Assembly (NCBI RefSeq): GCF_026898095.1 | Contig: NZ_CP114015.1 | Coordinates: forward strand, 930,001-994,000 | Length of the DNA stretch: 64,000 nt | Source of the DNA: Arthrobacter sp. ATA002 | GTDB taxonomy: Bacteria; Actinomycetota; Actinomycetes; Actinomycetales; Micrococcaceae | Reading direction: 5' to 3' | Shown: one piece after another, positions 21,912 to 64,000 of the stretch | Layout of the letters: every line of letters begins with the position of its first letter | Position numbering within the stretch: the first letter of the stretch is position 1 | Notes under the pieces: model-generated | Told to the model about the DNA's origin: nothing | The model's input: the letters and a program-made list of their open reading frames with translations, nothing else | Databases searched by the model: none | Translations under genes and position numbers: made by a program

Positions 21912-22567
21912 ATGTCTACTTCACTTACACGCCAGGTCAAGGGCCTTCTGGGCACCAAGCTGGGCATGACCCAGGTCTGGGACGAGAACAACAAGCTCAT
22001 CCCCGTCACCGTCGTTCAGGCTGACTCAAACGTTGTTACGCAGCTGCGCAACGCGGAGAAGGACGGCTACACCGCCGTGCAGATCGGCTACGGCCAGATC
22101 GACCCGCGCAAGGTGACCAAGCCGCTGGCCGGCCACTTTGAAAAGGCAGGCGTCACGCCTCGCCGCCACGTTGTTGAACTGCGCACCGCAGATGCCGACA
22201 CCTACGAACTGGGCCAGGAACTCTCCGTTGAGATTTTCGAAGCCGGCCAGAAGGTCGACATCACCGGAACCTCCAAGGGCAAGGGCTTTGCCGGTGTCAT
22301 GAAGCGTCACGGCTTCCACGGCGTCGGTGCCTCCCACGGTGCACACAAGAACCACCGTAAGCCCGGTTCCATCGGTGGCGCATCCACCCCGGGCCGCGTC
22401 TTCAAGGGCGTTCGGATGGCTGGCCGTATGGGCGCCGTCCGCCACACCACCATGAACCTCACGGTTCACGGTGTGGATGCCGAGAAGTCGCTCCTGCTGA
22501 TCAAGGGTGCCGTTCCCGGCGCCCGCGGCCAGGTCGTCCTCGTACGCACCGCCGTGAAGGAGCTTAG
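21912..22567 (+). CDS. rplC: 50S ribosomal protein L3, stop codon lost by an apparent 1-base deletion
   Basis: L3 is an early-assembly 50S protein near the peptidyl-transferase centre. ATG 21912 opens [20 protein letters not shown], and [19 protein letters not shown] and [16 protein letters not shown] are conserved. As given, the frame runs without a stop into rplD. Adding one G to the GG at 22559-22560 turns the end into V-K-G-A-stop (TAG 22565-22567), the usual L3 terminus, and gives 218 residues. The rplD ribosome site and ATG remain in place. I take the apparent L3-L4 fusion as a sequence error. Confidence 0.9.
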
Positions 22568-22571
22568 TCTC

Positions 22572-23186
22572 ATGGCTAACGAAACCACTGTTGAATTCCC
22601 CGCAGCGCTCTTCGACGTTCAGACGAACGTTCCGCTTCTGCACCAGGTAGTAGTTGCTCAGCTTGCAGCTGCCCGCCAGGGTACGCACAAGACGAAGACC
22701 CGCGCAGAGGTCTCCGGTGCCGGCCGCAAGCCGTTCAAGCAGAAGGGTACCGGCCGCGCCCGTCAGGGTTCCATCCGTGCTCCTCACATGACCGGTGGTG
22801 GCGTCGTCCACGGGCCGACGCCCCGCGACTACAGCCAGCGCACCCCCAAGAAGATGATTGCCGCCGCGCTTCGCGGTGCACTCTCCGACCGGGCACGCAA
22901 CGGCCGCATTCACGTGCTGGAAACCCTGGTAGCCGGCGATACGCCGTCGACCAAGGCCGCACGCGAGTCCCTGCGTTCACTGACCGACCGCAAGAACATG
23001 CTCGTTGTCATCGAGCGCGCCAACGATGTTGCTGCACTGTCCGTGCGCAACCTCACCGCTGTTCACGTGATCTACGTAGATCAGCTGAACACGTACGACG
23101 TGCTGGTTGCTGACGACGTGGTCTTCACCAAGGCTGCCTACGACGAGTTCGTCGGCAAGAACACTGTCAAGGAGGACGCCAAGTGA
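22572..23186 (+). CDS. rplD: 50S ribosomal protein L4
   Basis: L4 lines the exit tunnel and in some bacteria represses its own operon. ATG 22572, after AAGGAG at 22558-22563, gives 204 residues opening [17 protein letters not shown]. The tunnel-loop segment [19 protein letters not shown] is intact. It lies in frame with the upstream L3 gene only because the L3 stop appears to be lost. The stop overlaps the rplW start (GTGA). Confidence 0.95.
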
Positions 23187-23487
23187 GCGCGACCACCGCA
23201 AGGACCCCCGCGACGTGGTGCTGGCACCCGTCGTTTCGGAAAAGAGCTACGGCCTGATCGACGAAGGTAAGTACACCTTCCTGGTCGACCCCCGCTCCAA
23301 CAAGACCGAGATCAAGCTGGCCGTGGAGAAAATCTTCTCCGTCAAGGTCGACTCGATCAACACCATCAACCGTGCCGGTAAGCGCAAGCGGACCAAGTTC
23401 GGATGGGGACAGCGCAAGAACACCAAGCGCGCCATTGTCACCCTGAAGGACGGCACAATCGACATCTTCGGCGGTCCGCTCAGCTAG
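23183..23487 (+). CDS. rplW: 50S ribosomal protein L23, apparent 1-base deletion near the start
   Basis: L23 lies at the tunnel exit and docks trigger factor and SRP. GTG 23183 overlaps the rplD stop and reads M-S-A-T-T-A, but then the frame is wrong. One extra A at about 23200 joins it to [20 protein letters not shown] and the rest of a normal L23 of 101 residues. A shorter start at GTG 23215 would need no repair, but it has no ribosome site and loses conserved N-terminal residues. Confidence 0.9.
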
Positions 23488-23517
23488 GGCGGAGACCACT
23501 TTAACGAGGAATAAATA

Positions 23518-24357
<840 letters not shown>

Positions 24358-24369
24358 GAGCCTGGAAAC

Positions 24370-24651
24370 ATGCCACGCAGCCTGAAGAAAGGCCCCTTCG
24401 TCGACCAGCACCTGTTCCTTAAGGTAGCGGCCGAAAACGAAAAGGGCACCAAGAACGTCATCAAGACGTGGTCCCGCCGTTCGATGATCATCCCCGACAT
24501 GCTCGGGCACACGATCGCCGTACACGATGGACGTAAGCACATTCCGGTGTTTGTCACGGAGTCGATGGTCGGGCACAAGCTCGGCGAATTCGCCCTGACG
24601 CGGACATTCCGCGGCCATGTGAAGGACGACCGCAAGGGCAAGCGCCGCTAG
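24370..24651 (+). CDS. rpsS: 30S ribosomal protein S19
   Basis: S19 pairs with S13 in the 30S head. The protein has 93 residues with [15 protein letters not shown] at the N-terminus and [16 protein letters not shown] at the C-terminus. Length and motifs are normal. It starts 12 bases after rplB. Confidence 0.98.
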
Positions 24652-24689
24652 GCGCTGCTCTTTCGGCAGAAGACGAGAGAAGGAAAGCA

Positions 24690-25055
24690 ATGGAAGCCAA
24701 GGCAATTGCGCGTCATATCCGCGTAACGCCTATGAAGGCCCGGCGCGTCGTCAACCTTGTTCGTGGCAAGCAAGCGAATGAGGCAATGGCAATTCTGAAG
24801 TTTGCCCCCCAGGCAGCATCGGAGCCGGTACTTAAGGTAGTTCAGTCGGCCATGGCCAACGCACGTGTCCTCGCGGACCGTGACGGCCTGGCCTTCAACG
24901 AGGGTGACCTCTTCATCAGCGAAGCATTCGTTGATGAAGGGCCCACCATGAAGCGGTTCCAGCCCCGTGCCCAGGGCCGCGCGTACCGCATCAACAAGCG
25001 GACCAGCCACGTCACCGTGGTTGTCGCAACCCCCAAAATCGAGGAGGAACGCTAA
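24690..25055 (+). CDS. rplV: 50S ribosomal protein L22
   Basis: L22 lines the exit tunnel beside L4. ATG 24690 after GAAAGGAAAG gives 121 residues. The hairpin-loop segment [21 protein letters not shown], which contacts macrolides in other bacteria, is intact. rpsC starts directly at the next base. Confidence 0.98.
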
Positions 25056-25886
25056 GTGGGACAGAAGGTTAACCCGCACGGGTTCCGACTCGGCATCACC
25101 ACTGACCATGTGTCGCACTGGTTTGCTGACAGCAACAAGCCGGGCCAGCGCTACAAGGACTTCGTCCGCGAGGACATCAAGATCCGTCAGCTGATGTCCA
25201 CCGGCATGGACCGTGCCGGCATCGCCAAGGTTGAGATCGAGCGCACCCGTGACCGTGTCCGCGTGGATATCCACACGGCCCGCCCGGGTATCGTCATCGG
25301 ACGCCGCGGCGCAGAGGCAGACCGCATCCGCGGCGAGCTGGAGAAGCTCACCGGCAAGCAGGTTCAGCTGAACATCCTCGAGGTCAAGAATCCCGAGATG
25401 GAAGCCCAGCTTGTTGCCCAGGGCGTTGCTGAGCAGCTCTCTTCCCGCGTGGCTTTCCGCCGTGCGATGAAGAAGGCCATCCAGTCCGCACAGCGTGCCG
25501 GCGCCAAGGGTATCCGTATCCAGTGCTCCGGCCGTCTGGGCGGCGCTGAAATGAGCCGTTCGGAGTTCTACCGCGAAGGCCGTGTGCCCCTGCACACCCT
25601 CCGCGCGCAGATCGACTACGGCTTCTTTGAAGCCAAGACCACCTTCGGCCGCATCGGCGTGAAGGTTTGGATCTACAAGGGTGACGTTACCGCCAAGGAA
25701 CTGGCTGCACAGCAGGCTGCTGCACCGTCCCGCGGACGTTCCAGCGACCGTCCGGGCCGTGGCCCGGCCGACCGCGGAGACCGCCGTCGTCGTCCCGAGC
25801 GTGCCGACAAGGCCGCCGCGCCTGCTGCTGCAGAGGCTCCGGCCGCTGAGGCAGCCGCTCCCGCAGCAGAAGGAGGACAGGCTTAA
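25056..25886 (+). CDS. rpsC: 30S ribosomal protein S3
   Basis: S3 forms the mRNA entry channel. GTG 25056 starts immediately after the rplV stop, behind GAGGAACG. The KH domain shows [16 protein letters not shown]. The protein has 276 residues, with an Arg/Ala/Glu-rich low-complexity tail from about residue 220 ([19 protein letters not shown]), an extension usual in actinobacterial S3. Confidence 0.97.
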
Positions 25887-26303
25887 ATGCTTATCCCACG
25901 TCGAGTCAAGTTCCGCAAGCAGCACCACCCGGGTCGTTCCGGCGCTGCTACCGGCGGCACCGCAGTCAGCTTTGGCGAGTGGGGTATTCAGGCTCTGACG
26001 CCTGCATACGTCACCAACCGCCAGATCGAAGCTGCACGTATTGCCATGACGCGCCACATCAAGCGCGGCGGTAAGGTCTGGATCAACATCTACCCTGACC
26101 GTCCGTTGACGAAGAAGCCGGCCGAAACCCGCATGGGTTCCGGTAAGGGTTCCCCGGAGTGGTGGGTTGCAAACGTCAAGCCGGGCCGCGTTCTCTTTGA
26201 GATCTCCGGTGTTAATGAAGAGGTAGCTCGTGAGGCCCTGCGCCTGGCGATCCATAAGCTGCCGTTGAAGGCACGCATTGTGCGTCGCGAGGGTGGTGAA
26301 TAG
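25887..26303 (+). CDS. rplP: 50S ribosomal protein L16
   Basis: L16 binds near the A site. The protein has 138 residues and opens [17 protein letters not shown]. The conserved GEWGIQAL and [20 protein letters not shown] segments are intact. It starts directly after the rpsC stop. Confidence 0.98.
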
Positions 26304-26305
26304 AA

Positions 26306-26638
26306 ATGGCAATTGGTTCAAAGGAACTGGCACCGAAGCAGCTGGACGGCTTCGATAAGGACCGTCTCGTCGAGGAACTTCGCAAGGCCAAGGAAGAGCT
26401 GTTCAACCTCCGCTTCCAGTCCGCAACCGGCCAGCTGGAAAGCCACGGCCGCCTGCGCGTCGTAAAGCGCGACATCGCTCGCATTTACACCGTGCTGCGT
26501 GAGCGCGAGCTGGGGATTCGTCCCGAGGTTGTTGCTCCCGTTGAGGAAGCAGCTCCCGAAAAGGCAGCGAAGAAGTCCAAGAAGAAGGCTACTGAGTCTG
26601 AAGCTGAAGCCAAGGTCGCTGAGGATGATGCCAAATGA
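26306..26638 (+). CDS. rpmC: 50S ribosomal protein L29 with acidic/basic tail
   Basis: L29 lies at the tunnel exit beside L23. The conserved core ([20 protein letters not shown]-like region and the RRDIAR-type helix) covers about residues 10-72. The protein is 110 residues, longer than the usual 65-80, because of an Ala/Glu/Lys-rich C-terminal tail from about residue 78. The stop overlaps rpsQ by four bases. Confidence 0.95.
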
Positions 26639-26940
26639 GTGAAAACAAGAATGAGGCAGCAGTGACAACTGACGCAAACGGAGCCGATGCCCGCGGGTAC
26701 CGGAAGACCGCACGCGGCTACGTGGTTTCGGACAAGATGGACAAGACCGTTGTTGTCCAGGTTGAAGACCGCGTCAAGCACGCCCTGTACGGCAAGGTGC
26801 TTCGCCGCACCTCGAAGCTCAAGGCCCACGACGAGCAGAATGCTGCCGGCGTTGGAGACCTCGTGCTGATCGCCGAAACCCGGCCGCTTTCCGCTACCAA
26901 GCGGTGGCGCCTGGTCGAGATCCTCGAGAAGGCCAAGTAA
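26635..26940 (+). CDS. rpsQ: 30S ribosomal protein S17
   Basis: S17 is an early 16S rRNA binder. The protein has 101 residues. The OB-fold core begins near residue 20 ([20 protein letters not shown]) after an Ala/Asn-rich extension. ATG 26635 overlaps the rpmC stop. It is the last gene before a strong hairpin. Confidence 0.97.
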
Positions 26941-26965
26941 CTAAAGCAGTACATCCGGCCGGCCG

Positions 26966-27000
26966 CCGGCGGGCCGCTCCCTGAGGGAGGAGCCCGCCGG
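26966..27000 (+). terminator. terminator-like hairpin after rpsQ
   Basis: A 9-bp stem (26966-26974 with 26992-27000) encloses a second 5-bp stem (CTCCC/GGGAG) with a TGA loop. No U tract follows. Confidence 0.65.
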
Positions 27001-27018
27001 TAACCGCCAACCGGCGAC

Positions 27019-27062
27019 AGGGCCCCGGCCGCGTTATCATCCGATTTCGCATCCGGGGCCCT
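27019..27062 (+). terminator. second hairpin between rpsQ and rplN
   Basis: AGGGCCCCGG and CCGGGGCCCT form a perfect 10-bp stem around a 24-base loop, followed by TTCG. It may back up the first hairpin. Confidence 0.45.
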
Positions 27063-27666: not shown

Positions 27667-27669
27667 TCC

Positions 27670-28028
27670 ATGGCAAAAATCAAGAAGGGTGACCTGGTAC
27701 AGGTCATCAGCGGAGCAACTGCTGCCCGCGGCGGAGACCGCGGCAAGCAGGGCAAGGTCCTGAAGGTTTACACCGACACGAACCGCGTCCTGGTTGAAGG
27801 CATCAACACGGTTAAGAAGCACACCAAGGTTGGACAGTCCTCCAAGGGCTCCAAGACCGGTGGCATTGAAACCGTCGAAGCCCCCTCCACGTTTCCAACG
27901 TCGCAATCGTTGACCCGGAAACGAAGAAGCCGACCCGTGTTGGCTACCGCCAGGAAATCGTCGAAAAAGACGGCCGTGAGCGCACTGTGCGTATCCGCGT
28001 CGCCAAGGGCTCTGGGAAGGACCTCTAA
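27670..28028 (+). CDS. rplX: 50S ribosomal protein L24, apparent 1-base deletion
   Basis: L24 starts 50S assembly. ATG 27670 gives [20 protein letters not shown] and is normal up to GGIETVEAP. One extra A between 27885 and 27886 then restores [18 protein letters not shown] and continues to VAKGSGKDL and TAA 28026-28028, giving 119 residues. Without it the frame runs on to an unrelated tail ending at 28035. The repaired stop overlaps the rplE start by one base, as is normal here, which supports a sequence error. Confidence 0.92.
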
Positions 28029-28597
28029 TGACTGAGACTGTCACCAAGACCGTCCCCCGTCTGAAGACCCGCTACGCAGCGGAGATCAAGCAGACCCTGC
28101 AGGACGAATTCAACTACGCGAACGTCAACCAGGTTCCCCGCCTTGTCAAGGTTGTTGTGAACATGGGTGTTGGAGACGCCGCCAAGGACTCCAAGCTCAT
28201 TGACGGCGCCGTCAAGGACCTGACCCAGATCACGGGCCAGAAGCCGCAGGTCACGAAGGCCCGCAAGTCGATCGCTCAGTTCAAGCTGCGCGAAGGCATG
28301 CCCATCGGCTGCCACGCAACTCTGCGCGGAGACCGCATGTGGGAATTCGTCGACCGCCTGGTCACTCTGGCGCTGCCGCGTATCCGCGACTTCCGCGGCC
28401 TCAACGGCAAGCAGTTCGACGGCAACGGCAACTACACGTTCGGTCTGACCGAGCAGTCGATGTTCCACGAAATCGATCAGGACAAGATCGACCGCGTTCG
28501 CGGCATGGACATCACCGTGGTTACCACCGCAAAGACCGATGACGAGGGACGCGCGCTGCTGAAGGCGCTCGGCTTCCCGTTTACATCCGAAGATTAA
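28028..28597 (+). CDS. rplE: 50S ribosomal protein L5
   Basis: L5 binds 5S rRNA. The protein has 189 residues. Conserved segments include [31 protein letters not shown] and [18 protein letters not shown]. It is followed by a 90-base gap where some actinobacteria carry rpsN; none is present here. Confidence 0.98.
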
Positions 28598-36257: not shown

Positions 36258-37267
36258 GTGCTCATTGCACAGCGCCCCACCCTCACTGAAGAAGTCGTAG
36301 CCGACAACCGTTCACGGTTCATCATCGAGCCGCTGGAACCCGGTTTCGGCTACACCCTGGGTAACTCCCTCCGCCGTACGCTCCTGTCCTCGATCCCCGG
36401 TGCTGCAGTAACCAGCATTCGGATCGACGGCGTGCTGCACGAGTTCACCACGGTTCCGGGCGTGAAGGAAGATGTCACCGAGATCATCCTGAACGTGAAG
36501 AACCTGTCGGTCTCCTCCGAGCACGACGAACCCGTTGTCGCCTACCTGCGCAAGCAGGGTCCCGGCGTCGTGACGGCTGCGGACATTGCTCCGCCGGCCG
36601 GCGTGGAGTTCCACAACCCGGATCTGCACATTGCCACGCTCAATTCGAAGGGCAAGTTCGAGCTCGAACTGACCATCGAACGCGGCCGCGGCTACGTTTC
36701 CGCTAGCCAGAACAAGTCCGGTGACCAGGAGATCGGCCGTATTCCGGTTGACTCCATCTACTCGCCGGTCCTGAAGGTCACCTTCCGCGTGGAGGCTACC
36801 CGTGTTGAACAGCGCACCGACTTCGATCGCCTGATCGTTGACGTTGAAACCAAGGATGCCATTGCACCGCGCGACGCCGTCGCCTCTGCCGGCACCACCC
36901 TGGTTGAGCTGTTTGGCCTGGCCCGTGAACTGAACAGCGCCGCTGAAGGTATCGAAATCGGTCCGAGCCCCACGGATGCCGCACTGGCAGCCGACATGGC
37001 CCTGCCGATCGAAGACCTCGAGCTGACTGTGCGTTCCTACAACTGCCTCAAGCGTGAAGGCATCCACACTGTGGGTGAACTCGTTGCCCGCTCCGAGGCT
37101 GACCTGATGGACATTCGCAACTTCGGTGCAAAGTCCATTGATGAGGTAAAGGCAAAGCTGGTCGAGCTCGGTCTGTCCCTGAAGGATTCCCCTCCGGGTT
37201 TGATCTGGCCGCCCGTGCCGCAGCTATTGAAGAGGACGAGTCCGAATACTCGGACGACGAGCTCTAA
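36258..37267 (+). CDS. rpoA: RNA polymerase alpha subunit, apparent 1-base deletion near the end
   Basis: Alpha dimerises to start polymerase assembly, and its C-terminal domain binds UP elements and activators. GTG 36258 ([20 protein letters not shown]) is eight bases after AAAGGA; ATG 36252 is too close to it. The C-terminal domain helices ([20 protein letters not shown]) are intact. After SLKDSPPG the frame fails. One extra base at the GGGTTT run (37197-37201) restores [22 protein letters not shown] and TAA 37265-37267, 336 residues. As given, the frame runs on to 37355 and through the start of rplQ. Confidence 0.93.
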
Positions 37268-37332
37268 CACACGCAAAATTTTGCTGTCCGGACCTGTTGG
37301 CTCCGTACGGCACCGTTTGAGGAGAAAATGTA

Positions 37333-37875
37333 ATGCCTACACCCACCAAGGGTAAGCGCCTCGGAGGCAGCCCGGCCCACCAGCGCCTGATGCTGGCGAA
37401 CCTGGCCGCCCAGCTGTTCGAGCACAAGCAGATCACCACCACGGTGACGAAGGCCAAGCGTCTGCGTCCCTACGCCGAGCGCCTGATCACGTTCGCAAAG
37501 CGCGGAGACCTGTCTTCCCGCCGCCGCGTCCTGGGTCTGATCTCGGACAAGGGTATTGTCCACGAGCTCTTCACTGACATTGCTCCGGCAGTCGAGAAGC
37601 GCGACGGCGGCTACACCCGCATCACCAAGATCGGCAACCGCAAGGGCGACAACGCTCCCATGGCTGTCATCGAACTGGTTCTCGAGCCCGTCTCTGCCAA
37701 GCAGGCTGTCGTGGCCGAGGCCGAAACCGCAGCAGCCGTGGCTGCTCCGGCACCGGTCGAGGAATCCGCTGAGTCCGCCGACTCGGCTGAATCCGCCGAT
37801 TCTGCTGAGTCCGCCGATTCCGCTGAGTCTGCTGATTCCGCTGACGAAGCAGTGGAGGCCGAAGAGAAGAAGTAA
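37333..37875 (+). CDS. rplQ: 50S ribosomal protein L17 with acidic repeat tail
   Basis: L17 lies near the tunnel exit. The core (residues 1-120) opens [20 protein letters not shown]. The protein has 180 residues because of an acidic tail from about residue 135 that contains four ESADSA repeats. Acidic L17 tails are common in actinobacteria. A U-tract terminator follows at 37924. Confidence 0.97.
37771..37842 (+). repeat. four 18-bp tandem repeats in rplQ
   Basis: Four copies of an 18-base unit encode E-S-A-D-S-A each. They differ mostly at third positions, so the repeat is kept at the protein level. A half copy (GAATCCGCT) precedes them. Confidence 0.85.
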
Positions 37876-46899: not shown

Positions 46900-49088
46900 A
46901 TGGAAGTTTGGCCGGGAGATGCCTATCCGCTGGGCGCGACCTATGACGGAAACGGCACCAACTTTGCCCTGTACAGCGAGGTGGCTGATTCGGTCACGCT
47001 GTGCCTGTTCGACGATGACGGCGGCGAAGAATGCGTTCGCCTTACCGAGGTGGACGGCTACGTATGGCACTGCTATCTGCCCCATGTCCAGCCCGGGCAG
47101 AAGTACGGTTACCGGGTGGACGGCCCGAACGACCCGGAAAACGGCAACCGGTGCAATCCGAACAAACTTCTCCTGGACCCCTACGCCAAGGCCGTCACCG
47201 GCGAAATCGACTGGGACCAGGCTCTGTTTGGCTACAACTTCGGCGACGAAAACTCGCGCAATGACGAAGACTCCGCGCCGCACATGATGATGGGCGTTGT
47301 CATCAACCCGTTCTTTGACTGGGACGGCGACCGCAAGCCCAGGATTCCGTACCACCAGTCGGTGATTTATGAAGCCCACGTCAAGGGACTGACCGAACGG
47401 CATCCGGACGTCCCCGAGGAGCAGCGCGGCACCTACGCCGGAGTGGCCCATCCCTCGGTCATCGCGCACCTGCAGAAGCTGGGCATCACCGCAATCGAGC
47501 TGATGCCGGTACATCAGTTCGTGAACGATTCCACGCTGCAGGACAAAGGCCTGTCCAACTACTGGGGCTACAACACCATCGGGTTCTTCGCGCCGCAGAA
47601 CACCTACAGCGCCACCGGCGACAGGGGCCAGCAGGTACAGGAGTTCAAAGCCATGGTGCGCGCGCTGCATCTGGCCGGCATTGAAGTGATCCTTGACGTG
47701 GTGTACAACCACACAGCCGAGGGCAACCACCTGGGCCCCACGCTTTCCTTCCGCGGTATCGACAACCAGGCGTACTACCGGCTGATGGATGACGACAAGC
47801 GGTACTACATGGACTACACCGGCACGGGCAACTCGCTGAACGTGGGCAACCCGCACTCGCTGCAGCTGCTCATGGACTCGCTGCGTTACTGGGTGACGGA
47901 GATGCATGTGGACGGCTTCCGGTTTGACCTCGCGTCCACCCTGGCCCGCGAGTTCTACGACGTCGACAAGCTCTCCACCTTCTTCGAACTGGTGCAGCAG
48001 GACCCCGTGGTTTCCCAGGTGAAGCTGATCGCCGAGCCCTGGGACATCGGTCCGGGCGGTTACCAGGTGGGCAACTTCCCGCCGCAGTGGACGGAATGGA
48101 ACGGCAAGTACCGCGACACCGTCCGTGACTTCTGGCGCGGTGAACCGTCGACGCTGGGCGAGTTCGCTTCGCGGATCACCGGTTCCGCCGATCTCTACGA
48201 GTCCTCGGCCCGCCGCCCGGTGGCCTCGATCAACTTCGTGACCGCCCACGACGGCTTTACACTGCATGACTTGGTCTCGTACAACGAGAAACACAACGAA
48301 GCCAACGGCGAAGACAACAACGACGGCGAATCCCACAACCGCTCCTGGAACTGCGGCGTGGAGGGGCCCACCGACGACCCCGCGGTGCTCTCGCTCCGTG
48401 CCCGGCAGCAGCGGAACTTCCTGGCGACCCTGCTGCTCTCGCAGGGTGTGCCGATGATCGCGCACGGCGACGAACTCGGACGCACCCAGCAGGGCAACAA
48501 CAACACCTACGCGCAGGACTCCGAACTCAGCTGGATCAACTGGGACGCCATGGACGCACCGCTGATGGAATTCACGGCGGCGGTGAACACCCTGCGGGCC
48601 GAGCACCCGACATTCCGGCGCCGCCGGTTCTTCGACGGCGCCCGGTGCGCCGCGGCGAGGGCGAGGCGCTGCCGGACATCGTATGGCTGACGGAGGACGG
48701 CACGCCGATGACCCAGGATGACTGGGACACCCCGGTCAGCCGCTCGCTCGGCGTGTTCCTCAACGGCCAGGGAATCTCCGGCAAGGACGCCCGCGGGCAG
48801 CGCATCACCGACCTGAACTTCCTGCTGTACTTCAACGCCCACGACGAGGCCGTCAAGGTCACCATTCCGTCGCAGGAATACGCCCCCATGTGGGACCAGG
48901 TCATTGACACTGCGGGGGAGTACGCGGACTCGGCACCCATTCCCGCCGACGGCCAGATCACCGTCGCGGCCAAATCCATGGTGGTGCTGCGCGCCCACGA
49001 GGAGGAAGAGGAACACGACCACTCAGTGGCGGCATCCCTCGCCGTGCTGGCCGGCTCCAAGGCACAGAACCCGGCGGCCGCGGTATGA
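46900..49088 (+). CDS. glgX: glycogen debranching enzyme GlgX, apparent 1-base deletion
   Basis: It removes limit-dextrin branches from glycogen and releases maltooligosaccharides for TreY. ATG 46900 follows CAGGAG. GH13 motifs: [19 protein letters not shown] (nucleophile Asp), LIAEPWD (acid Glu) and [10 protein letters not shown]. After FRRRRFFDG the frame fails. One extra base in 48637-48641 gives R-P-V-R-R-G-E-G and joins the C-terminal part to TGA 49086-49088, 729 residues. The stop overlaps treY (ATGA). Confidence 0.93.
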
Positions 49089-51418
49089 GGACCCCGCTGT
49101 CCACCTACCGTCTCCAGATCCGCCCCTCCTTCACGCTCCACGATGCCGCCGAACTCGTGCCGTACCTCTCGGACCTGGGCGTGGACTGGGTATATCTCTC
49201 GCCCATCCTCACGGCCGAGGAGGGATCGGACCACGGGTACGACGTCGTCGACCCCTCCGCCGTGGACCCGGCGCGCGGCGGGCCGGAGGGGCTGAAGGCC
49301 CTTTCCGGCGCCGCCCACGCCGCGGGTATGGGAGTGCTGGTGGATATCGTGCCCAACCACATGGGCATCGCGACGCCGCCCACCAATCCGTGGTGGTGGT
49401 CGGTGCTGGCGCAGGGCCGGCAATCACGGTATGCGGAAGCGTTCGACATCGACTGGGACGCCGGCAACGGGAAGCTTCGCCTGCCCGTGCTGGGGGACGG
49501 AGACAACGAGCTGGCCGAGCTGAAGCTGGCCGGCGGTGAACTGCACTACTACGGACACCGCTTCCCGGTAGCCGAAGGCACCGCCGGAGACAGCGACTCC
49601 GCGCAGGACGTCCATGCCCGCCAGCACTATGAACTGGTGAACTGGCGCCGCGCGGACAGCGAGCTGAACTATCGGCGTTTCTTCGGCGTCAACACCCTCG
49701 CCGGTATCCGGGTGGAGGAACCCTGGGTCTTTGAGGAGTCCCATGCCGAAATCAAGCGCTGGTTTGATGAAGGGCTTGTGGACGGACTGCGGATCGACCA
49801 CCCGGACGGCCTGGCAGACCCCAAGGGCTACCTGGCCCGGCTCCGTGAACTGACCGGCGGGGCATACATCCTGGTCGAGAAAATTCTGGAGCCGGGGGAG
49901 GCCCTGCCCGGGACTGGGAAACCGAAGGCACCACCGGATATGACGCGCTCGCCGACATCGACCGGCTCTTTGTCGATCCGGAGGGCATGAAGCCGCTCAC
50001 CGATCTCGTGCCCACGGAAGCCTTTGGCCACATGATCCACGGCACCAAACGGACCATCGCCGACCAGCTGCTGAACTCGGAAGTGCAGCGGCTGGTCCGC
50101 CTGCTGCCCGGCGACAGCGGACTGGATGCCGGGACAGCTGCGGACGCAGTGGCTGAGCTGCTCGCGTGCTTCCCCGTGTACCGCAGTTACCTGCCCGAGG
50201 GAGCGCAGTATCTTGCCGACGCGGTAACCGCTGCCAAGGTCCAGCGCCCCGACCTGGCCGGTGCGCTGGACAAGCTGCATCCGCTCCTCAACCCGCTGTC
50301 CGCCGCCGGGGCTGATGTGCCCGGCGGAGCAGACCTGGGTGAGCTGGCCACAAGGTTCCAGCAAACGTCGGGCATGGTGATGGCCAAAGGCGTGGAAGAT
50401 ACCGCGTTCTACCGGTATGCCCGGCTGACGTCGCTCAATGAAGTCGGGGCCGACCCGGCGCACTTTGCCGTGGAACCCTACGAGCTGCACAACCGGCTTC
50501 TCCGCCGGCAGCAGGAGCAGCCTGCCGCAATGACCGCCCTGAGCACTCACGACACGAAGCGCAGCGAAGACACACGGGCCCGGATTTCTGTGCTGGCCGA
50601 AATTCCGGACGAGTGGCGGGAAGCCTTCACGGCGTTGTCCTCGCTGGCGCCGATGGGCGATCCAGCCATGGAAAACCTGCTGTGGCAGGCGATTGTCGGG
50701 GCCTGGCCGCTGAGCCGGGAACGGGCTCATGCCTACGCTGAGAAAGCATCACGGGAGGCCTCCGCCAGCACCACCTGGACAGCGCCGAACCCCGAGTTCG
50801 AAGACCGGATGCACGCGGCGGTCGACGCGGCATTCGATAACGCGGAGGTGAACGCCGTCGTCGAGTCCCTGGTCGAACGCACACGTTCCGCGGGCTATTC
50901 CAACTCGCTCTCCGCGAAGCTGCTTCAGCTGACCATGCCCGGCGTACCCGACGTTTATCAGGGAACGGAGTTTTGGGACCGTTCCCTCGTGGATCCGGAC
51001 AACCGCAGGGAAGTTGACTTCAACCTCCGGCGCGGGGTGCTGGCGTCCCTCACGGACACGGCCGAAGCCCCCGTCATCGACGAGGAAGCCGCCGCCAAGC
51101 TGCTGCTGGTGTCGCGCGCCCTGGGGCTCAAGCGCTCCCGTCCCGACCTGTTCACGGACTACCTGCCGGTTTCGGCAACGGGACCCGCAGCGGAACATGT
51201 GTTCGCTTTGACCGGGGCGGTGCCGTGGGCCTGGTGACCCGGCTGCCGCTGGGACTGGAACGCTCCGGCGGCTGGCGGGACACCGCCGTCGTCCTGCCGG
51301 CGGGGACCTACTCGGACGTCCTGACCGGCAGGGCCCACGAAGCAGCGGCGCCGTGCGGGCTGCGGATTTGTTTGGCATTTATCCGGTGGTGCTGCTGGTA
51401 CGGAAGGACAGCGAATGA
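49085..51418 (+). CDS. treY: maltooligosyl trehalose synthase TreY, three apparent 1-base deletions
   Basis: It turns the reducing end of maltooligosaccharides into a trehalose unit. Family motifs: [45 protein letters not shown] (nucleophile Asp), [11 protein letters not shown] (acid Glu) and [15 protein letters not shown]. The frame breaks at 49907-49909 (needs a [21 protein letters not shown]), at 51212-51213 (needs a [21 protein letters not shown]) and at 51342 (needs a [21 protein letters not shown]). The repaired protein has 778 residues and stops at TGA 51416-51418, overlapping treZ as ATGA. In the sequence as given, no full enzyme can be made. Confidence 0.9.
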
Positions 51419-53162
51419 AGACCGATTTCGATGTGTGGGCGCCCAAAGCCAACACCGTGACGCTCGTAGCGGACGACCGGAAGCTGTCGATGAGCCGGGG
51501 GAGAACGGCTGGTGGCATGTCCAGCACGCGGAGCTTCCCGGAGACATCGACTACGGCTACCTTATCGACGACGCCGAAACGCCGGTGCCGGATCCCCGGT
51601 CCCGCCGGCAGCCGGAAGGGGTCCATGCGCTCTCGCGCACCTTCGACCCCGACCGGTATGAATGGCACGACGGGGACTGGTCCTCGCCGGGCCTCGACGG
51701 CGGTGCGGTCTACGAGCTGCACATCGGCACGTTTACGCCCGAGGGAACATTCGATGCTGCTGCCGGCAAGCTGGACTACCTCGTGGACCTCGGCGTGCGG
51801 TACGTGGAACTGCTTCCGGTGAACGCATTCAACGGAACACACAACTGGGGATACGACGGCGTGCTCTGGTATGCCGTACAGGAAACCTACGGGGGACCGG
51901 AAGGCTATCAGCGGTTCGTGGACGCCGCCCACGAAGCCGGACTGGGCGTCATTCAGGACGTGGTCTACAACCATCTCGGACCCAGCGGAAATTACCTTCC
52001 CATGTTCGGCCCCTACCTTTCCGACGGAAAGGGCAACACCTGGGGTGACTCGGTAAACCTCGACGGGCCGCTGTCCGACGTGGTCCGCCGCTACATCCTG
52101 GACAACATTCAGATGTGGTTCCGGGACTTTCACGTGGACGGGCTGCGGCTGGACGCGGTCCATGCCCTGCACGACGAACGGGCCGTGCACATCCTGGAGG
52201 AAATGGCCGCTGAAACCGAGAACTGTGCCCGGGAACTGGGCAAGCCGCTGTTCCTCATAGCGGAGTCCGACCTCAACGACCCGCGCCTTATCACTCCCCG
52301 GGAGCTGAACGGCTACGGCCTCACCGGACAGTGGTCGGATGACTTCCACCATGCTGCCCATACCAACCTCACAGGGGAGAACGGCGGCTACTACGAAGAC
52401 TTCGATTCGCTGGCGGCCCTGGCGAAGGTGCTGCAGGACGGCTTCTTCCATGACGGTTCCTTCTCATCCTTCCGGGGCCGCACCCACGGCCGTCCGCTGA
52501 ACAAGGAGGTCGTGGGCGCCCGTCAAATGGTGACCTGCATCCAAAACCACGACCAGATCGGCAACCGTGCCGCCGGGGACCGGCTCAGCGGTTCGCTGGA
52601 CTACTCCCGGCTGGCCCTGGGAGCGGTGCTGAACCTGACGTCCCCGTTCACACCCATGATCTTCATGGGCGAAGAATTTGGTGCCTCCACACCGTGGCAG
52701 TTCTTCACCTCCCATCCTGAGCCCGAGCTGGGTAAAGCCACGGCGGAAGGCCGGCTGCGGGAGTTTGAGCGCATGGGTTGGGACCCCGCCACGGTACCCA
52801 ACCCCCAGGATCCGGCGACGTTCGCCAACTCCAAGCTGGATTGGTCGGAGGTGGACCGGGACGGGCACGCCAGGCTGCATGACCTGTACCGCCGCCTCCT
52901 GCAGCTGCGGGCCGACCGCCCGGATTTGACGGACCCCGACCTGCGCAGCGTGCACGTGGAGTTTGACGAGGTGGGGCGCTGGCTGCTCATGCGGCGCGGA
53001 GAGACTGCCGTGGCGCTCAATTTCGCCGACGCTCCCCGGGAAATACCGGTTCCGTTCGGGAGCAGGACGAAGGTGCTGCTTGAGACGGGCGCGCCGGCCG
53101 AAGTGTACGGGGATGCCCTCCAGCTGCCGCCCTACGGGGCCGCGGTCCTGGCCGCCGGATAA
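51415..53162 (+). CDS. treZ: maltooligosyl trehalose trehalohydrolase TreZ, apparent 1-base deletion
   Basis: It cuts free trehalose from the TreY product. ATG 51415 opens [20 protein letters not shown]. The frame fails at 51492, and one extra G (ATG-GAG) continues as [19 protein letters not shown]13 motifs: [23 protein letters not shown] (nucleophile Asp), LIAESDLND and [12 protein letters not shown]. The repaired length is 582 residues. It is the last gene of glgX-treY-treZ. Confidence 0.92.
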
Positions 53163-55530: not shown

Positions 55531-56119
55531 GCGGGCAGAACGGCGGCAACGGCGTGCCCGTGTGGGAAGAAGAGATCCGCACTGCCAATCCGGACGAAAC
55601 CCAGGCGGCAGCAGAGCGGATCGGCCGCAGGCTGGAGGCCGGTGACCTGATCCTGCTGACCGGCGAGCTTGGGGCCGGAAAAACGACCTTCACCCAGGGC
55701 CTGGGCCGGGGGCTGGGGGTGCGGCCGGGCATCATTTCCCCCACCTTCGTGCTGGTGCGCATCCATCCCAGCCTCGGAGACGGGCCGAACCTGGTGCACG
55801 TGGATGCCTACCGGCTCGGCTCCAGCGGAGAGATTGACGACATCGACCTGGAGAACACCATGGACAGCTCCGTCACCGTGGTGGAGTGGGGCCGCGGATT
55901 GGTGGAGCACCTTCGGACAGCCGGCTCGAGATCACCCTGGTGCGGCCGACCGGGGCTGACACCGCCCCCAACCGGGATACCGACGGGTGGAGCTTCGACT
56001 TCGACGATGATCCTGATGAAGAGCGGAGAATTCGAATCGCCGCCTACGGTCCCCGATGGCAGGAAACTCCCCTGCGGCCCGCCGGGCCCGCGGATGGTGC
56101 CGCGCCGGCGGAGACGTAA
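55527..56119 (+). CDS. tsaE: tRNA t6A ATPase TsaE, apparent 1-base deletion
   Basis: TsaE is the ATPase partner of TsaB and TsaD in t6A37 synthesis. ATG 55527 gives MSGQNGGNGVPVWEEEIRTA. The P-loop is GELGAGKTTFTQGLGRGLG, with ISPTFVLVR and HVDAYRLGS next. At CACCTT (55908-55913) the frame fails. One extra base gives SDSRLEITLVRPTGADT and an Asp/Glu-rich tail to TAA 56117-56119, 197 residues. As given, the frame runs on into tsaB and fakes a TsaE-TsaB fusion. Confidence 0.92.
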
Positions 56120-57310: not shown

Positions 57311-58374
57311 ACCGCACCGACCCCCTGGTGCTTGGCATCGAATCATCCTGTGACGAAACCGGCGTCGGCATTGTCCGCGGCGCCAAGCTGCTGACCAATA
57401 CGGTGTCCTCCTCCATGGAGGAGCACGTTCGCTTTGGCGGAGTCATTCCGGAAATTGCCTCCCGCGCCCATCTGGATGCGTTTGTGCCGACGCTCAGGCA
57501 GGCCCTGGACGACGCCGGAGTGACGCTTGAAGAGGTTGACGCGATCGCAGTGACGTCCGGGCCGGGGCTGGCCGGCGCCCTGATGGTCGGTGTCTGCGCC
57601 GCGAAGGCGCTCGCCGCCGCCACCGGAAAGCCGTTGTATGCCATCAACCACCTGGTGGCGCACGTGGGGGTGGGCGTGCTCGACGGCGGTGACCTGCCGG
57701 AGAACCTTGGAGCCCTGCTGGTTTCCGGAGGCCACACCGAGATCCTCCGGGTGAAGTCGCTGACGGGGGATGTTCAGTTGCTGGGGTCGACGATCGACGA
57801 CGCCGCCGGCGAGGCCTATGACAAGGTGGCCCGGATTCTCGGGCTGGGGTATCCCGGCGGTCCCGCCATCGACAAGCTCGCCCGGAGCGGCAACCCGAAG
57901 GCGGTCCGCTTTCCCCGCGGCCTGACCCAGCCCAAATACATGGGCACCGCCGAGGAACCCGGGCCCCACCGCTACGACTGGTCCTTCTCCGGGCTCAAGA
58001 CGGCCGTGGCCCGGTGCGTGGAACAGTATGAGGCCGCCGGGGAAGAGCTTCCCGTGGCCGACATCGCAGCGTCCTTCCAGGAAGCCGTGGTGGACGTCAT
58101 CACGACCAAGGCGGTTCTGGCCTGCACTGAACACGGCATCACAAACCTGCTGCTCGGCGGGGGAGTAGCCGCCAACTCCCGGCTCCGGGAGCTGACGGCG
58201 CAGCGCTGTGCGGCCAAAGGCATCACGCTGCGCGTGCCGCCAATATCCCTGTGCACGGACAACGGTGCCATGGTTGCAGCGTTGGGTGCACAGGTGGTGA
58301 TGGCGGGCGCCGAGCCTTCGGGTCTTGGCTTTGCTCCGGACCCGTCCATGCCGGTCACCAGCATCCATCTTTAG
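57307..58374 (+). CDS. tsaD: tRNA N6-threonylcarbamoyladenosine transferase
   Basis: TsaD transfers the threonylcarbamoyl group to A37 of tRNAs. The protein has 355 residues and opens [20 protein letters not shown]. Metal-site histidines lie in [25 protein letters not shown] and [14 protein letters not shown] (ATP site) are conserved. The 3' end overlaps the convergent DUF222 gene by 20 bases. Confidence 0.97.
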
Positions 58375-60106
58375 CGGTTCTCCGAGGGTCTGGTGGCTCT
58401 TGGGCCCGGCTGGCCCTGAAGGCCCTGCTGGTTAGGGAGGCCTTGGAACCGGGAGGCCCCGGTGCCGCAGAGGTGTAGCAGTGTCCGGTGGGAGTCACCG
58501 TTTCGACGGTGTGCCTGCTGCTGGCCGGTGTCGCTGCCGAATCTGTGCCGGCGGCGGTGGCGGAAAGGGCGTGCGTCGTCCAGCCGGGTGCTTCCTTGGC
58601 CTGGTTACAGGCCTGGCAGAGTCCCTGGATGTTCACCACGGTGGTAGGTCCGCCTTCGCGGGCGGGCTGGATGTGGTCGTAGTGGCGGATCGGGGCACCG
58701 CACCACGGGGTCCGGCAGATTTGGTCCCGGGCCGCGATCAGCCGGGCCAGCCCGTGGGGCACCAGCCGGGCACGGGAATCCATCGCCGTGAGCGCCCCCG
58801 TATCCGGGGCCACGTAGAGCCGGCGGAGCCAGGTCTCAGTCTGCGGGTCCGGCCGGCGCGGCGGGGCTGCACCCCAGGCTGGCCCGACACGTCCGGTTCC
58901 GGCCCAGCCGGAAGGACCTTGTGAATGGTCGGGACGTCCTGCCTGATCACCGGACCTGCCCTGAGCATCGAACCGGTCGTCGGGGTGAGAATCCGGGTAA
59001 GTGCCGCTTGAAGGAGGATCATCTGGTTGTGGGTCATCCGGTTCCGAGTTTGGTTCTAGGTCCGATTCCGGGTTAGGTCCGCGGATCAGGTCCCGAGCCC
59101 ACTGCGCGGGAACCATTCCATAACCAGCCAGAACCGCCGGCTCCGCCCCGTCAGGCACGAAGGACTCGGCTACGTCTGTTGGGATCCGGTCCTGCCCCTG
59201 CTCCTGGCTCTTATCTGTGTCTCTAACCTTGTCCTGGCCCTGGCCCTGGCCCTGGCCCTGGCCCTGGCCGTGGCCGTGGCCGTGGCCCTGTCGCTGGGGC
59301 AGGATGCCGTGGAGTAGGGCCTGGTCCGTCATGATCAGTTGCACCTCGATCCGGGCGTCTTCGGCCCGGGCCTGACCGGTAGCCCGCTCCACGAACGTGT
59401 CCGCCATGATCTGGCCCTTCGTCCGGGGATCCCCGGCAGCCCGCAACCGGTCCGCTTCCCGGGTCAACGCCGCATACACGCCCACCCCCTGCGCCACCGG
59501 CAGCAGAGCCGTCAGATACGTCATGGTGTCCGGAGCCGGACGGCAGGACACAAACCGCTCCGACACCGCATGCGCGGCCCGCTTGACCACCGCATGCGGA
59601 TCCAACCCGTACGACAACGACTTGATCCTCGCGATGAGTTTCCGGTCCCCGAGCTGCTCCAGCTCGGCCAGGTTCCCCGCGACCACCTCGTCGACTTTTT
59701 GCCGGTCCGCCAGGGTCAGGCACGCTGTTTCCCGGACCAGGAGCATCGCCCGCCACTCACTAATCACCCCCAGGGTCAGGGCGTGCAGGGTGTGGGGCAT
59801 TTCCGTGGTCAGGATCCGCGCCAACCCCAGCAACCGGGTCCCGTGATGCGGGGATTCCCGGCGGGCCAGCGCGATCTGCGCCGCGACGCCGCGGCCCAGC
59901 TGTTCCTTCTTCACCCCGGCAGCGGCCTGCGCGCGGCGGGTCGCGGCGTCGAAGATGGCGGCGGCCTGGGCCTGGGCCGCGGACGCGGCGGCTTTCAGCT
60001 CCTCCAGAGCACGGATTTGGTCAATCAACCCGGCGAGAAGTTCGGCTTCTGCTGGGACAGGCGCAGTAGGGCTGACGGCTCGGTGACTCTGCAGCGATTC
60101 GTACAT
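58355..60106 (-). CDS. DUF222/HNH endonuclease family protein
   Basis: This is a member of the 13E12-type group with an N-terminal DUF222 region and a C-terminal HNH nuclease-like domain; these are common multi-copy genes in actinobacteria, often linked to mobile DNA. ATG 60106 gives 583 residues; GTG 60133 adds nine residues. The DUF222 part spans about residues 15-280. A (GH)3(GQ)6 run and an acidic Pro/Asp stretch follow. The nuclease motif is [20 protein letters not shown] with [11 protein letters not shown]. The function is not established. Confidence 0.85.
59234..59287 (-). repeat. nine 6-bp tandem repeats inside the DUF222 gene
   Basis: Six CTGGCC and three GTGGCC units (plus strand) encode Gly-Gln and Gly-His pairs. 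Changes in copy number would keep the frame. Confidence 0.9.
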
Positions 60107-60113
60107 GTGTTCT

Positions 60114-60119
60114 ATGTTA
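60114..60119 (-). promoter_or_regulatory. -10 box for the DUF222 gene
   Basis: On the minus strand TAACAT is followed by seven bases and ATG 60106. This supports the shorter start as a leaderless gene. No good -35 is visible. Confidence 0.35.
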
Positions 60120-60229
60120 GTAACGCATGTCACAGAATGGACGGTTTGTCGCTACGGGACAAATACTCGACTGCCGCGAACTGCCACCGGTCCGCACGGC
60201 AGAAACCCGCCGCCGTCGTCCCCGCGGTC

Positions 60230-61378
60230 TTAGCCTTCGCCGCGCAGCTGGCGGATGCCGTCCTGGACCACTGCGCGCAGGTCGCCGCCGTTTTCAGCAG
60301 CTATGCGGCGCTGCCGCTGGTAGCCCGCTCCACGTTCGATGATGGTGCGCACATCGGCCAGCTCGGCGGTGCAGCCGAGCTTCTCGGCTACCGGTGCCAG
60401 GCGCGGCAGGACGTCTTCGAGGAGGTGGTCGGTCACCAGCTTCTCGTTGCCCGCAGCGTCGAGGATGATGATGGCGTCCAGTCCATACCGGGCCGCGCGC
60501 CATTTGTTTTCCTGTACGTGCCACGGAGGCATGGTGGGAATGGTGCCGCCGTTGTCGAGGATGGTCGAGAACTCGTCCACCAGACACTGGGTCAGGGCGG
60601 CAAGGGCGCCAACGTCCTGAATAGTGGCCATTCCGTCACAGATGCGCATTTCAATAGTTCCCAGACCGGGAACCGGACGTACGTCCCAGCGGATCTCGCT
60701 GATCGAGTCGATGACTCCGGTGGTGAACATGTCCTGCACGTAGGACTCATACTCTGCCCAGGAACCGAACTGGAAAGGCAGCCCCGCCGTCGGCAGCTGC
60801 TGGAACATCAGCGCACGCTGCGACGCGTAACCGGTGTCCTCGCCCGACCAGTACGGGGAGGAAGCGGACAGAGCCTGGAAATGCGGGAAGTAATTGACCA
60901 GCCCGTCAAGGACCGGCAGCGCCTTGTCCCTGGAATCCAGGCCTACGTGCACATGTACGCCGTAAATGAGCATCTGCTGGCCCCACCACTGCGTACGGTC
61001 GATCAGCTTGGCGTAGCGTTCCTTGTCCGTGACCGGCTGTGACCGCGGGGCGCTGAACGGATGCGAACCGGAACAGAACAGTTCCACGCCCATGGGGTCG
61101 GTGACCCGGCGCAGGGCGTCGAGGGAGCGGGTCAGGTCTGCCTTGGCCTCGGCGACGGTGTTGCACACGCCGGTAACCAGCTCGACAGTATTCTCGAGGA
61201 GCTCCTGCTTAATGTGCGGATGCTCGTCATCTTCGCTGATGCCCGGATGCGCTGCGCTGACGCCGCGCAGGACTTCGTCCGCCACGGACACCAGATCTCC
61301 CGTGGTCCGGTCGACAAGTGCCAGCTCCCATTCAACGCCGAGCGTGGACTGAGCTGATTGGGCGAAACCGATTTCCAA
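60230..61378 (-). CDS. GCS2-family carboxylate-amine ligase (YbdK-like)
   Basis: It belongs to glutamate-cysteine ligase family 2, which forms an amide between a carboxylate and an amine using ATP; several members make gamma-glutamylcysteine-like products. The start is TTG 61378 with an AGGAGA ribosome site. The protein has 382 residues. LGVEWELALVDRTTGDLV is the N-terminal motif. GVHVHVGLDSRDKAL and VPGLGTIEMRICDG are conserved. Mycothiol producers do not need glutathione, so the true substrate is open. Confidence 0.87.
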   Translation of the reverse strand: MEIGFAQSAQSTLGVEWELALVDRTTGDLVSVADEVLRGVSAAHPGISEDDEHPHIKQELLENTVELVTGVCNTVAEAKADLTRSLDALRRVTDPMGVELFCSGSHPFSAPRSQPVTDKERYAKLIDRTQWWGQQMLIYGVHVHVGLDSRDKALPVLDGLVNYFPHFQALSASSPYWSGEDTGYASQRALMFQQLPTAGLPFQFGSWAEYESYVQDMFTTGVIDSISEIRWDVRPVPGLGTIEMRICDGMATIQDVGALAALTQCLVDEFSTILDNGGTIPTMPPWHVQENKWRAARYGLDAIIILDAAGNEKLVTDHLLEDVLPRLAPVAEKLGCTAELADVRTIIERGAGYQRQRRIAAENGGDLRAVVQDGIRQLRGEG

Positions 61379-61455
61379 ACTGTCTCCTGCTGTAATGCAT
61401 ATTCTTCGGAGGAACCCCGACCCGCATCATCGCGCTTGAGAACCCGGGTTCAATC

Positions 61456-62627
61456 CTAGCCGTGCAGGGGAGGCAAACCGTCCACCAGCCGGGACAGGGC
61501 ATCTGCGGTGAGCGCCGTGTACAGCGGGACGGCATCCGGATAGATGAATTCGCCGCGGGCATGCGCTCCGCCGCCGACGGCGCCCATGCCGCACAGCACC
61601 GGCACGCCCAGCGCGGCAACAAAGTTGGCGTCGCTGGCGCCGCCCACGGACGTATCCTGCAAGTCGAGGCCCATTGAATGGGCGGCTTCGCGGACAAGTG
61701 CCAGCAGCGGGTCGCCGGGCTGCGCCGTCATCGGCGGGCGGTTCCAGTAATGGTCGATTTCCAGGCGCACCCGGGGGTCACTGACCCCGACGGCGTCCAG
61801 CTCCCGGTCCACGCGCTCCATTTCGGCTGCCGTTTCCACCCGGATATCGATCGTGGCGCTGGCCCGCCCTGCGGAAACGTTGCTTCCTGAACCGCCCTCA
61901 ATGAGCCCCACGTTGACTGAGGTACCGCGGCTGAGATCGGCGACGCCGACGGCGGCCGTCACGAATTCCGCCAGCGCATGGATGGCGCTGGCGCCGCTGC
62001 CGGATCCAGCCCGGCATGGGCCTCCACCCCGGTGGAGGTTACGGTGAAGATGCCCACGCCCTTGCGGCCCGTCTTGACCGCTCCGCCGGCGGTGGCCTCC
62101 AGCACCAGGACGGCGTCGGCGTCGTGGGCGGCCTTTTCGATCGCTGCACGAGAGCCGTCTGAGCCGATTTCCTCATCGCCGTTGAAGAGGAAAGTTATCG
62201 TCGGACGAGGCTTTCCACTGTCCTGCAGGAGCTTCAACGCCCAGATTCCCTGGACCAGCCCGGTTTTCATGTCGAAGATGCCCGGGCCGGATAATGTCGT
62301 CCGGGCAGTGTCGTCGGTTCCTTCGGTGAGCGGCCATCCGGCCAGAGTGCCCGCCGGCCACACTGTGTCGTAGTGGGCCAGGATGAGCACGTGACCCGGC
62401 CCGGAACCCGGATAGGTGACTTTCAGCGTGGCGCCGAGAACACCGTCGTCCTCCAGCTGTTCAGCCGCCGGTGCGCCCAGCCGCAGCTGGATCAGGGAGC
62501 GCACCTGATTCAATCCGGCATCGAGCCCGGCGCGGTCCCTGCTGTAGGTTTCAATCTCCACCAGGGAAGCGATGTCGGCGATGATCTCGGGAAGGCTGGA
62601 GCGGGCGGTGTCGAGCAGGTTGTTCAT
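61456..62627 (-). CDS. M20 peptidase, carboxypeptidase-G2-like, apparent 1-base deletion
   Basis: This zinc metallopeptidase resembles glutamate carboxypeptidases that cut folate-type aminobenzoyl-glutamates. ATG 62627. Metal ligands: His in LILAHYDTVW, Asp in GIFDMKTG, Glu pair in FNGDEEIGS and Glu in VLVLEAT. GVEAHAGLDP begins the dimerisation domain. The frame fails at 61994-61995. One extra base gives AAGASAIHALAEFVTAAVGV and continues to TAG at 61458-61456, 390 residues. The next gene upstream on this strand is an AbgT transporter, which fits a shared substrate. Confidence 0.88.
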
Positions 62628-62703
62628 GGTTCTCCTGGTAGGGCAGTAACAGCACCGGGTGCAACGGAAACGGCGTGGAATGGGAACGACGTGGAACGGG
62701 AAC

Positions 62704-64000
62704 TTAGATCCCGAACGGAATGCCGAGCGCGTACCACAGCATGAAGAAGGCCATCCATACCACCCAGATGACCATGGCCAGCGGGATAGTGAAGGAAGCC
62801 AGGGTGCCGATACCTGCGGACTGGCGGTACTTTTGGACGAATCCCAGGGCCATCACGAAATAGGGGCTCATCGGAGTGACGCAGTTGGTGACGGAATCCG
62901 CGATCCGGTACATCGCCTGCGTCGTCGCCGGCTCTATGTCCAGGAGCATGAGCATTGGCACGAAAATCGGAGCGGCCAGCGACCACATGGCGGATCCAGA
63001 CGTGATGATGAAGTTCATGACCGAAATCAGGACGGCGATTCCGAGGAGGATGGCCCAGCCGGGTGCATTGATGCTGTCCAGGGTCCGTGCCCGCTGATGG
63101 CGAGGACTTCACCCATGCCCGTCCATTTGAAGTAGGCCAGGAACTGTGAAATGGCGAAAAACAGGACCAGGATCGGTGCCATCGACTTGATGCCCTCGAT
63201 CATGGCCCCCGTGACGTCGGAGCCACTCGTGAACGTTCCGGCCGAGCGCCCGTAGACGACGCCGATCACGGCGAAAAAGAGCCCGATGACAAAGGCCATG
63301 CCGCCGATGACCGGCGAGTTCAGCACTCCGCCCGCTTCTCCGCGGAAGGGGAGCCGGCGGGAATCAGCGATGCGGCCATTGCGGCCAGGAACAGCAGCGC
63401 GGTGATGCCGGCGAGGCGCAGTGCGCGGCGTTCGCGGGTGGAGATGCGCAGGTCGGCCACCGAGCCGGCTGGCTCGTCGCTGGCATCGGCTTCCAGATCC
63501 GGGCGTTTGGAAAGGACTTTCTCAACGACCACCGTGATGGTCAGGGAGATCAGGACGGAGGACGCCAGGCTGAAAAAGTAGTTGGCCAGCGGCGTGACGA
63601 CGACGGAGGAATCGATGGTGCCCGCAGCGGCCGTGGTGATGGAGGAAAGCAGGACGTCGGTGGTGGTGAGCGAGGGGGACGCGTCGTATCCGGCGGAAAT
63701 GGAGACGAAGGCGACAATGGCGCCTAGGACCGGGCTCTTGCCGACGGCCCGGAAAACCAGGGCTCCGAGGGGATCAGCGTTACGTAGGCAGCGTCTCCGG
63801 CCACATGGCCCAGCATGGCTGCCATGGCCAGGGCGAAGGTCACGTACTTGGCCGGGACCTTCGTGACGGTGTTCCGCAGCAGCGTGTCGATCAGGCCGCT
63901 CTTCTCCGCAATCGCGATGCCGAGCATGGTGGTCAGGATGGTTGCCAGCGGAGGAAACGACGCGAAGTTTGCGACGGCGTCACCGATCATGGTCTGGATG
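62704..64000 (-). CDS. AbgT-family transporter, N-terminus outside the window, three apparent 1-base deletions
   Basis: AbgT proteins move p-aminobenzoyl-glutamate or related compounds across the membrane. About 433 residues are visible. Helices include PLATILTTMLGIAIAEKSGL, AMAAMLGHVAGDAAYVTLIP and SAMWSLAAPIFVPMLMLL; TNCVTPMSPYFVM is a family signature. The frame breaks, in plus-strand positions, at 63769-63772 (restores LIPLGALVFRAV), 63348-63351 (restores AGSPFRGEAGGVLNS) and 63090-63092 (restores SGARTLDSINAPGW). The stop is TAA at 62706-62704. Confidence 0.87.

What the first reader, a model, noticed from the sequence alone, without database searches (positions are those of the whole stretch)
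22500..64000. Fourteen single-base deletions, all of the same sign, across the second two thirds of the window
Each of rplC, rplW, rplX, rpoA, glgX, treY (3), treZ, tsaE, the M20 gene and the AbgT gene (3) becomes a full family-typical protein if one base is added at a defined point. Repaired lengths are whole codons and the repaired stops overlap the next start in the local style (TAATG, ATGA). Most sites are next to G or C runs. None was seen before 22.5 kb. Essential genes cannot tolerate this, so the likely cause is under-called homopolymers in reads or an unpolished assembly.
Basis: partly seen in the sequence, partly recalled or inferred. Interest (0 to 1): 0.75.

Follow-up and report, generated by a model that had tools for sequence, protein, structure and literature searches.

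The report
Missing-base errors in a genome assembly
The broken genes are very probably sequencing mistakes: single bases are missing at many places in this deposited bacterial chromosome and the living bacterium should have intact genes, so the finding is ordinary and useful mainly as a warning about data quality.

Summary
All fourteen sites are in the deposited sequence: one base is lacking in rplC, rplW, rplX, rpoA, glgX, treY (3), treZ, tsaE, an M20 peptidase gene and an abgT-like gene (3). Ten are seen against 5 of 5 relatives, four against the one of the five that maps there. The fault is not confined to this part. In 264 kb around the window, 39 frame breaks are shared by two references, 37 of them a missing base; 16 of the 37 lie in the 100 kb upstream. 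The two references give 1 and 2. The six rRNA operons of this chromosome disagree by one-base run-length differences, in 16S at nine columns where all 25 copies of four relatives agree. Breaks sit at homopolymers more than simulated random deletions do (mean longest run 3.54 against 2.46, P about 5e-5), and codon-position constraint continues past the breaks as in unbroken genes. So these are residual base-calling or assembly errors, most likely from long reads without adequate polishing; the platform is inferred. Not a biological feature.

The parts
21912..23186 (+). rplC and rplD in one 424-aa frame; one base lacking near 22560, at the end of rplC
   Evidence: one-base gap against 5 of 5 relatives; TIGR03625 L3 and TIGR03953 L4 in one frame
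23183..23487 (+). rplW, one base lacking near 23199; the predicted open frame starts only at 23215
   Evidence: one-base gap against 5 of 5 relatives; relatives' 306-bp gene maps to 23183-23487; predicted frame 23215-23487
27670..28035 (+). rplX, one base lacking near 27881; this frame matches only positions 1-65 of 104 of the L24 profile
   Evidence: 5 of 5 relatives; TIGR01079; the genome's only matches are two overlapping pieces at this place
36258..37355 (+). rpoA, one base lacking near 37193; C-terminal end replaced, frame 365 aa
   Evidence: 5 of 5 relatives; NF003514 matched 1-315 of 338; only match in the genome
46900..49085 (+). glgX, one base lacking near 48636
   Evidence: 5 of 5 relatives; TIGR02100 matched 2-583 of 688
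49085..51415 (+). treY, one base lacking near 49905, 51204 and 51339
   Evidence: 5 of 5 relatives at each; TIGR02401 split over two frames
51415..53162 (+). treZ, one base lacking near 51496
   Evidence: 5 of 5 relatives; TIGR02402
55527..56798 (+). tsaE running into tsaB in one 423-aa frame; one base lacking near 55911
   Evidence: 5 of 5 relatives; TIGR00150 and TIGR03725 in one frame
61456..62627 (-). M20 family peptidase gene in two frames, break near 61995
   Evidence: one relative, G007; Peptidase_M20 in both pieces
62704..64000 (-). AbgT family transporter gene in at least four pieces, breaks near 63090, 63347 and 63769; gene runs off the window end
   Evidence: one relative, G007; PF03806 in four pieces, one of them (63323-63532) below the family cut-off

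Best explanation
These are errors in the deposited consensus sequence, not mutations. Reads that under-call the length of short homopolymer runs gave a consensus with about one missing base per 4.7 kb of compared gene sequence around the window (37 in 175,395 bases); the living strain should have intact genes. Shown: the spread beyond the window, the sign bias in protein genes, the association with runs, the continued codon constraint past the breaks, and the disagreement among the six rRNA copies of one chromosome. Inferred: that the source is a long-read-only or poorly polished assembly, and that the rate holds for the whole chromosome; platform and pipeline are not shown.
For: 39 breaks shared by both references in 264 kb, 37 lacking a base, against 1 and 2 in the references treated the same way. 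Away from gene ends the method detected 1496 of 1500 simulated single deletions. Longest run within 4 nt averages 3.54 at the 37 sites against 2.46 for the simulated deletions, P about 5e-5; 18 of 37 have a run of 4 or more against 151 of 1496. At runs identical in both references, one-base losses are 2 of 21369, 2 of 6316, 3 of 936, 2 of 150, 1 of 31 and 1 of 6 for runs of 1 to 6. Differences by codon position after the first break (0.066, 0.052, 0.325) resemble unbroken genes (0.058, 0.041, 0.285). Six 16S copies, 1528-1532 long, differ among themselves by one-base indels at nine columns where all 25 copies of four relatives agree. 32 one-base indel columns among the six copies in the 23S stretch. 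Breaks in four of five far stretches compared. rpoA and rplX have no second copy. Published descriptions match (passages of PMC12007338, PMC8812927, PMC8011154).
Against: The rRNA copies show gains as well as losses (16 gains, 14 losses, 2 ties in 23S; four of the nine 16S columns are gains), so a pure under-call model is incomplete; 31 further 23S columns differ in other ways and were not explained. 4 of the 37 sites, and 5 of the window's 14, have no run longer than 2 nearby. The run-length table rests on 11 losses, this genome also has 3 gains in it, and reference G001 shows a loss at 1 of 6 runs of six too. The spread is slightly uneven: the longest break-free stretch exceeds chance at P 0.015, though that count leaves out the rplC and rplW sites. 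One far stretch, L120, had no break in 14 genes. Two of G001's six 16S copies are also short by one and two bases. At least one shared break, 63.7 kb upstream of the window, and both extra-base breaks have ragged alignments. No reads were available.
Confidence: 0.97

Rival explanations
1. The one-base losses are real mutations in the sequenced clone, from slippage in a hypermutating or decaying lineage.
For: Real slippage also favours runs (general knowledge); the association with runs is there.
Against: The only copies of rpoA and rplX are hit, genes held to be essential (general knowledge); codon constraint continues past the breaks, so such mutations would have to be very recent; 16S positions identical in all 25 relatives' copies are changed in some copies of this genome and not in others.
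Confidence: 0.01
2. The genes are read through by programmed or unusually frequent ribosomal frameshifting.
For: The parts after the breaks stay conserved.
Against: 37 such breaks in 31 genes within 264 kb, each judged against references that lack them; rRNA, which is not translated, has the same kind of fault.
Confidence: 0.005
3. The errors are artefacts, but driven mostly by modified bases or particular sequence motifs rather than by run length.
For: 4 of 37 sites lack a run longer than 2; by eye, several local alignments could also be read as a base lost between two like bases. No motif enrichment was computed.
Against: The association with runs is strong against simulated deletions and points the same way at conserved sites.
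Confidence: 0.1

Closest known systems
Residual homopolymer indel errors in long-read-only bacterial assemblies
   Same: Short indels at homopolymers that cause frameshifts in genes; false deletions are the majority of indels in the assembly profiled in PMC12007338 (passages read of PMC12007338, PMC8812927, PMC8011154).
   Different: In the assembly of PMC12007338 A and T runs were commonest; here the longest run near the site is G or C at 11 of the 14 window sites, in a 61-69% GC window, with no background computed for the base. PMC8011154 also shows drafts dominated by insertions, so the sign depends on the pipeline.
Errors left in repeats after short-read polishing
   Same: PMC8812927 describes errors that survive polishing in repeats; here rRNA copies disagree.
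   Different: Here unique protein genes are affected too, so repeats alone do not explain it.

Membership tests
homopolymer-type assembly errors | predominantly one-base indels, mostly losses, in coding sequence | tested here: met
   37 of 39 shared breaks are losses; in rRNA the sign is mixed
homopolymer-type assembly errors | associated with homopolymer runs beyond chance | tested here: met
homopolymer-type assembly errors | spread through the assembly, not tied to one region or function | tested here: met
   264 kb around the window; four of five far stretches compared, five more not compared; rRNA operons at six places
homopolymer-type assembly errors | contradicted by accurate reads of the same strain | not testable with these tools
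   no reads available
true pseudogenes | relaxed codon-position constraint after the break | tested here: not met
   a very recent loss would not show this

The most novel reading that the evidence does not exclude
The sequenced culture really carried a burst of one-base slippage deletions in essential genes and rRNA copies, tolerated by some unknown recoding or by heterogeneity of the culture.
Probability: 0.01. Interest if true: 0.9.

Novelty: not a real feature. Interest (0 to 1): 0.08.

Why it matters
As biology it does not. As data quality it does: around the window this one-contig genome has about one false frame break per 4.7 kb of compared genes, so gene counts, pseudogene claims, apparent fusions (rplC-rplD, tsaE-tsaB) and 16S copy variation from this record should not be trusted without reads.

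Tried and rejected
The first reference gene set included antisense open frames of a GC-rich genome and missed several genes; it was replaced by one chosen with codon log-odds. With that first set and at least 3 references the counts were 8 for the window (7 losses, 1 gain) and 1, 1, 0, 1 and 5 for the relatives, the 5 in G015 falling on minus-strand frames. Raw gap counting gave 40 gaps in the window, many between genes or in compensating pairs, and 14 to 64 in the relatives; it was used only for the two gene-end sites. One search failed by a script error; a corrected script ran. Of the ten far stretches fetched from the same genome, five were compared and five (L123 to L127) were not; no control on relatives was run there. 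In L129 the two breaks are a loss and a gain in one gene; L122 had only 4 mapped genes.

A real cause for the clean first 22.5 kb was considered: 0 found against 3.9 expected, P 0.02, on a boundary chosen after looking, 18,646 bases compared. No regional cause is claimed.

Only listings were seen, passages of three papers were read. The domain scans covered the broken genes and two neighbours; other genes named here follow general knowledge. An earlier count gave 22 relatives' 16S copies of 1528 bases; one search shows 23, one of 1527 and one of 1526.

Full report
Place. The window is bases 930001-994000 of a 3,904,590-base one-contig genome rated 94.24% complete and 1.97% contaminated; the 18 same-genus relatives examined are rated 99-100% complete. 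The best-scoring named records for one window protein are Arthrobacter, first A. gandavensis.

Observation. Five relatives were fetched over 80 kb each and their gene order checked against the window. Genes were predicted by codon log-odds and each relative's genes were aligned to the window, following the reading phase. Eight places in the window lack one base against 5 of 5 relatives and none gains one. The five relatives, treated alike, gave 2, 1, 0, 1 and 0. Unfiltered clusters were 26 for the window and 20, 30, 22, 25 and 15 for the relatives. The gene-end sites in rplC and rplW, which this method cannot see, are one-base gaps against 5 of 5 relatives. The M20 and abgT-like sites rest on one relative and on domain pieces lying in different frames.

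Extent. Ten neighbouring stretches of the same genome and matching stretches of G001 and G004 extend the view to 264 kb. This genome has 53 breaks against G001 and 52 against G004, of which 39 are shared: 37 lacking a base, 2 with a base too many. G001 has 43 against this genome and 17 against G004, 1 shared; G004 has 30 and 12, 2 shared. Over 175,395 bases compared with both references the 37 fall as 16 in the 100 kb upstream, 0 in window 1-22500, 8 in window 22501-64000 and 13 in the 100 kb downstream; 3.9 would be expected in the clean part. In five far stretches compared with G001 (one search fetched the references), the counts were 4, 9, 2, 3 and 0; G004 gave 5 and 6 in the first two. Of the 18 against G001, 15 are losses. 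The fault is therefore not regional.

Copies that should agree. The genome has six 16S matches, 1528 to 1532 long. Aligned with 25 copies from four relatives, they differ among themselves by one-base indels at nine columns at which all 25 copies agree: at five a base is lost in some copies, at four a base is gained. Five further columns differ by substitution, two of which also vary among the relatives. In the 23S stretch of the six operons, with limits set by eye, there are 32 one-base indel columns, 26 of them with 3 to 6 bases in the longer form of the run: 16 gains, 14 losses and 2 ties by majority of the copies. Another 31 columns differ in other ways. No relative was compared for 23S. 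The relatives are not spotless: two of the 25 16S copies, both in G001, are one and two bases short.

Mechanism. At the 37 missing-base sites the longest run within 4 nt averages 3.54; for the 1496 detected of 1500 simulated random deletions it averages 2.46, P about 5e-5. At runs identical in both references with identical flanks, the share with one base lost in this genome is 0.009% for single bases, 0.03% for runs of 2, 0.3% for 3, 1.3% for 4, 3.2% for 5 and 1 of 6 for 6, on 11 losses in all, with 3 gains. The same count gives 6 losses and 2 gains in G001, one of the losses among its 6 runs of six, and 2 losses and 5 gains in G004. For the window's 14 sites alone the effect is weaker: 9 have a run of 3 or more against 38% of random positions.

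Not mutations. Differences from G004 by codon position are 0.091, 0.043, 0.281 before the first break, 0.066, 0.052, 0.325 after it, and 0.058, 0.041, 0.285 in unbroken genes, for 31 broken genes. Selection has thus kept the downstream parts in frame until recently at least. rpoA and rplX have no other copy in the genome.

Known counterpart. Long-read-only bacterial assemblies are described as keeping residual homopolymer-length errors that cause frameshifts (passages of PMC8812927, and PMC8011154); in one assembly false deletions are the majority of indels and are tied to runs of two to eight bases (passages of PMC12007338). That is the best reading here. The platform is inferred, and the mixed sign in the rRNA copies is not explained.

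Noticed in passing
six rRNA operons, L181-L186: One-base differences among the copies include about as many gains as losses, unlike the protein genes, where losses dominate; not explained.
   Followed up: partly
L128, 16259-16995: One 789-bp gene of G001 maps with five missing-base breaks and one extra-base break; G004 gives three missing-base breaks there. True pseudogene or error cluster.
   Followed up: no
window 58355-60133, minus strand: 592-aa open frame with an HNH domain; relatives' proteins match it in one frame only, at 54-66% identity, so it does not look broken.
   Followed up: no
window 62704 to about 65300, minus strand: In relative G007 the frame covering the abgT-like gene was predicted as 2559 bp, longer than the 502-position AbgT profile needs; start choice or fusion was not examined.
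   Followed up: no
window 21912-23186: The L4 part scores 364.9 bits on the 'L4, sunset domain variant' model, below its cut-off of 385.
   Followed up: no
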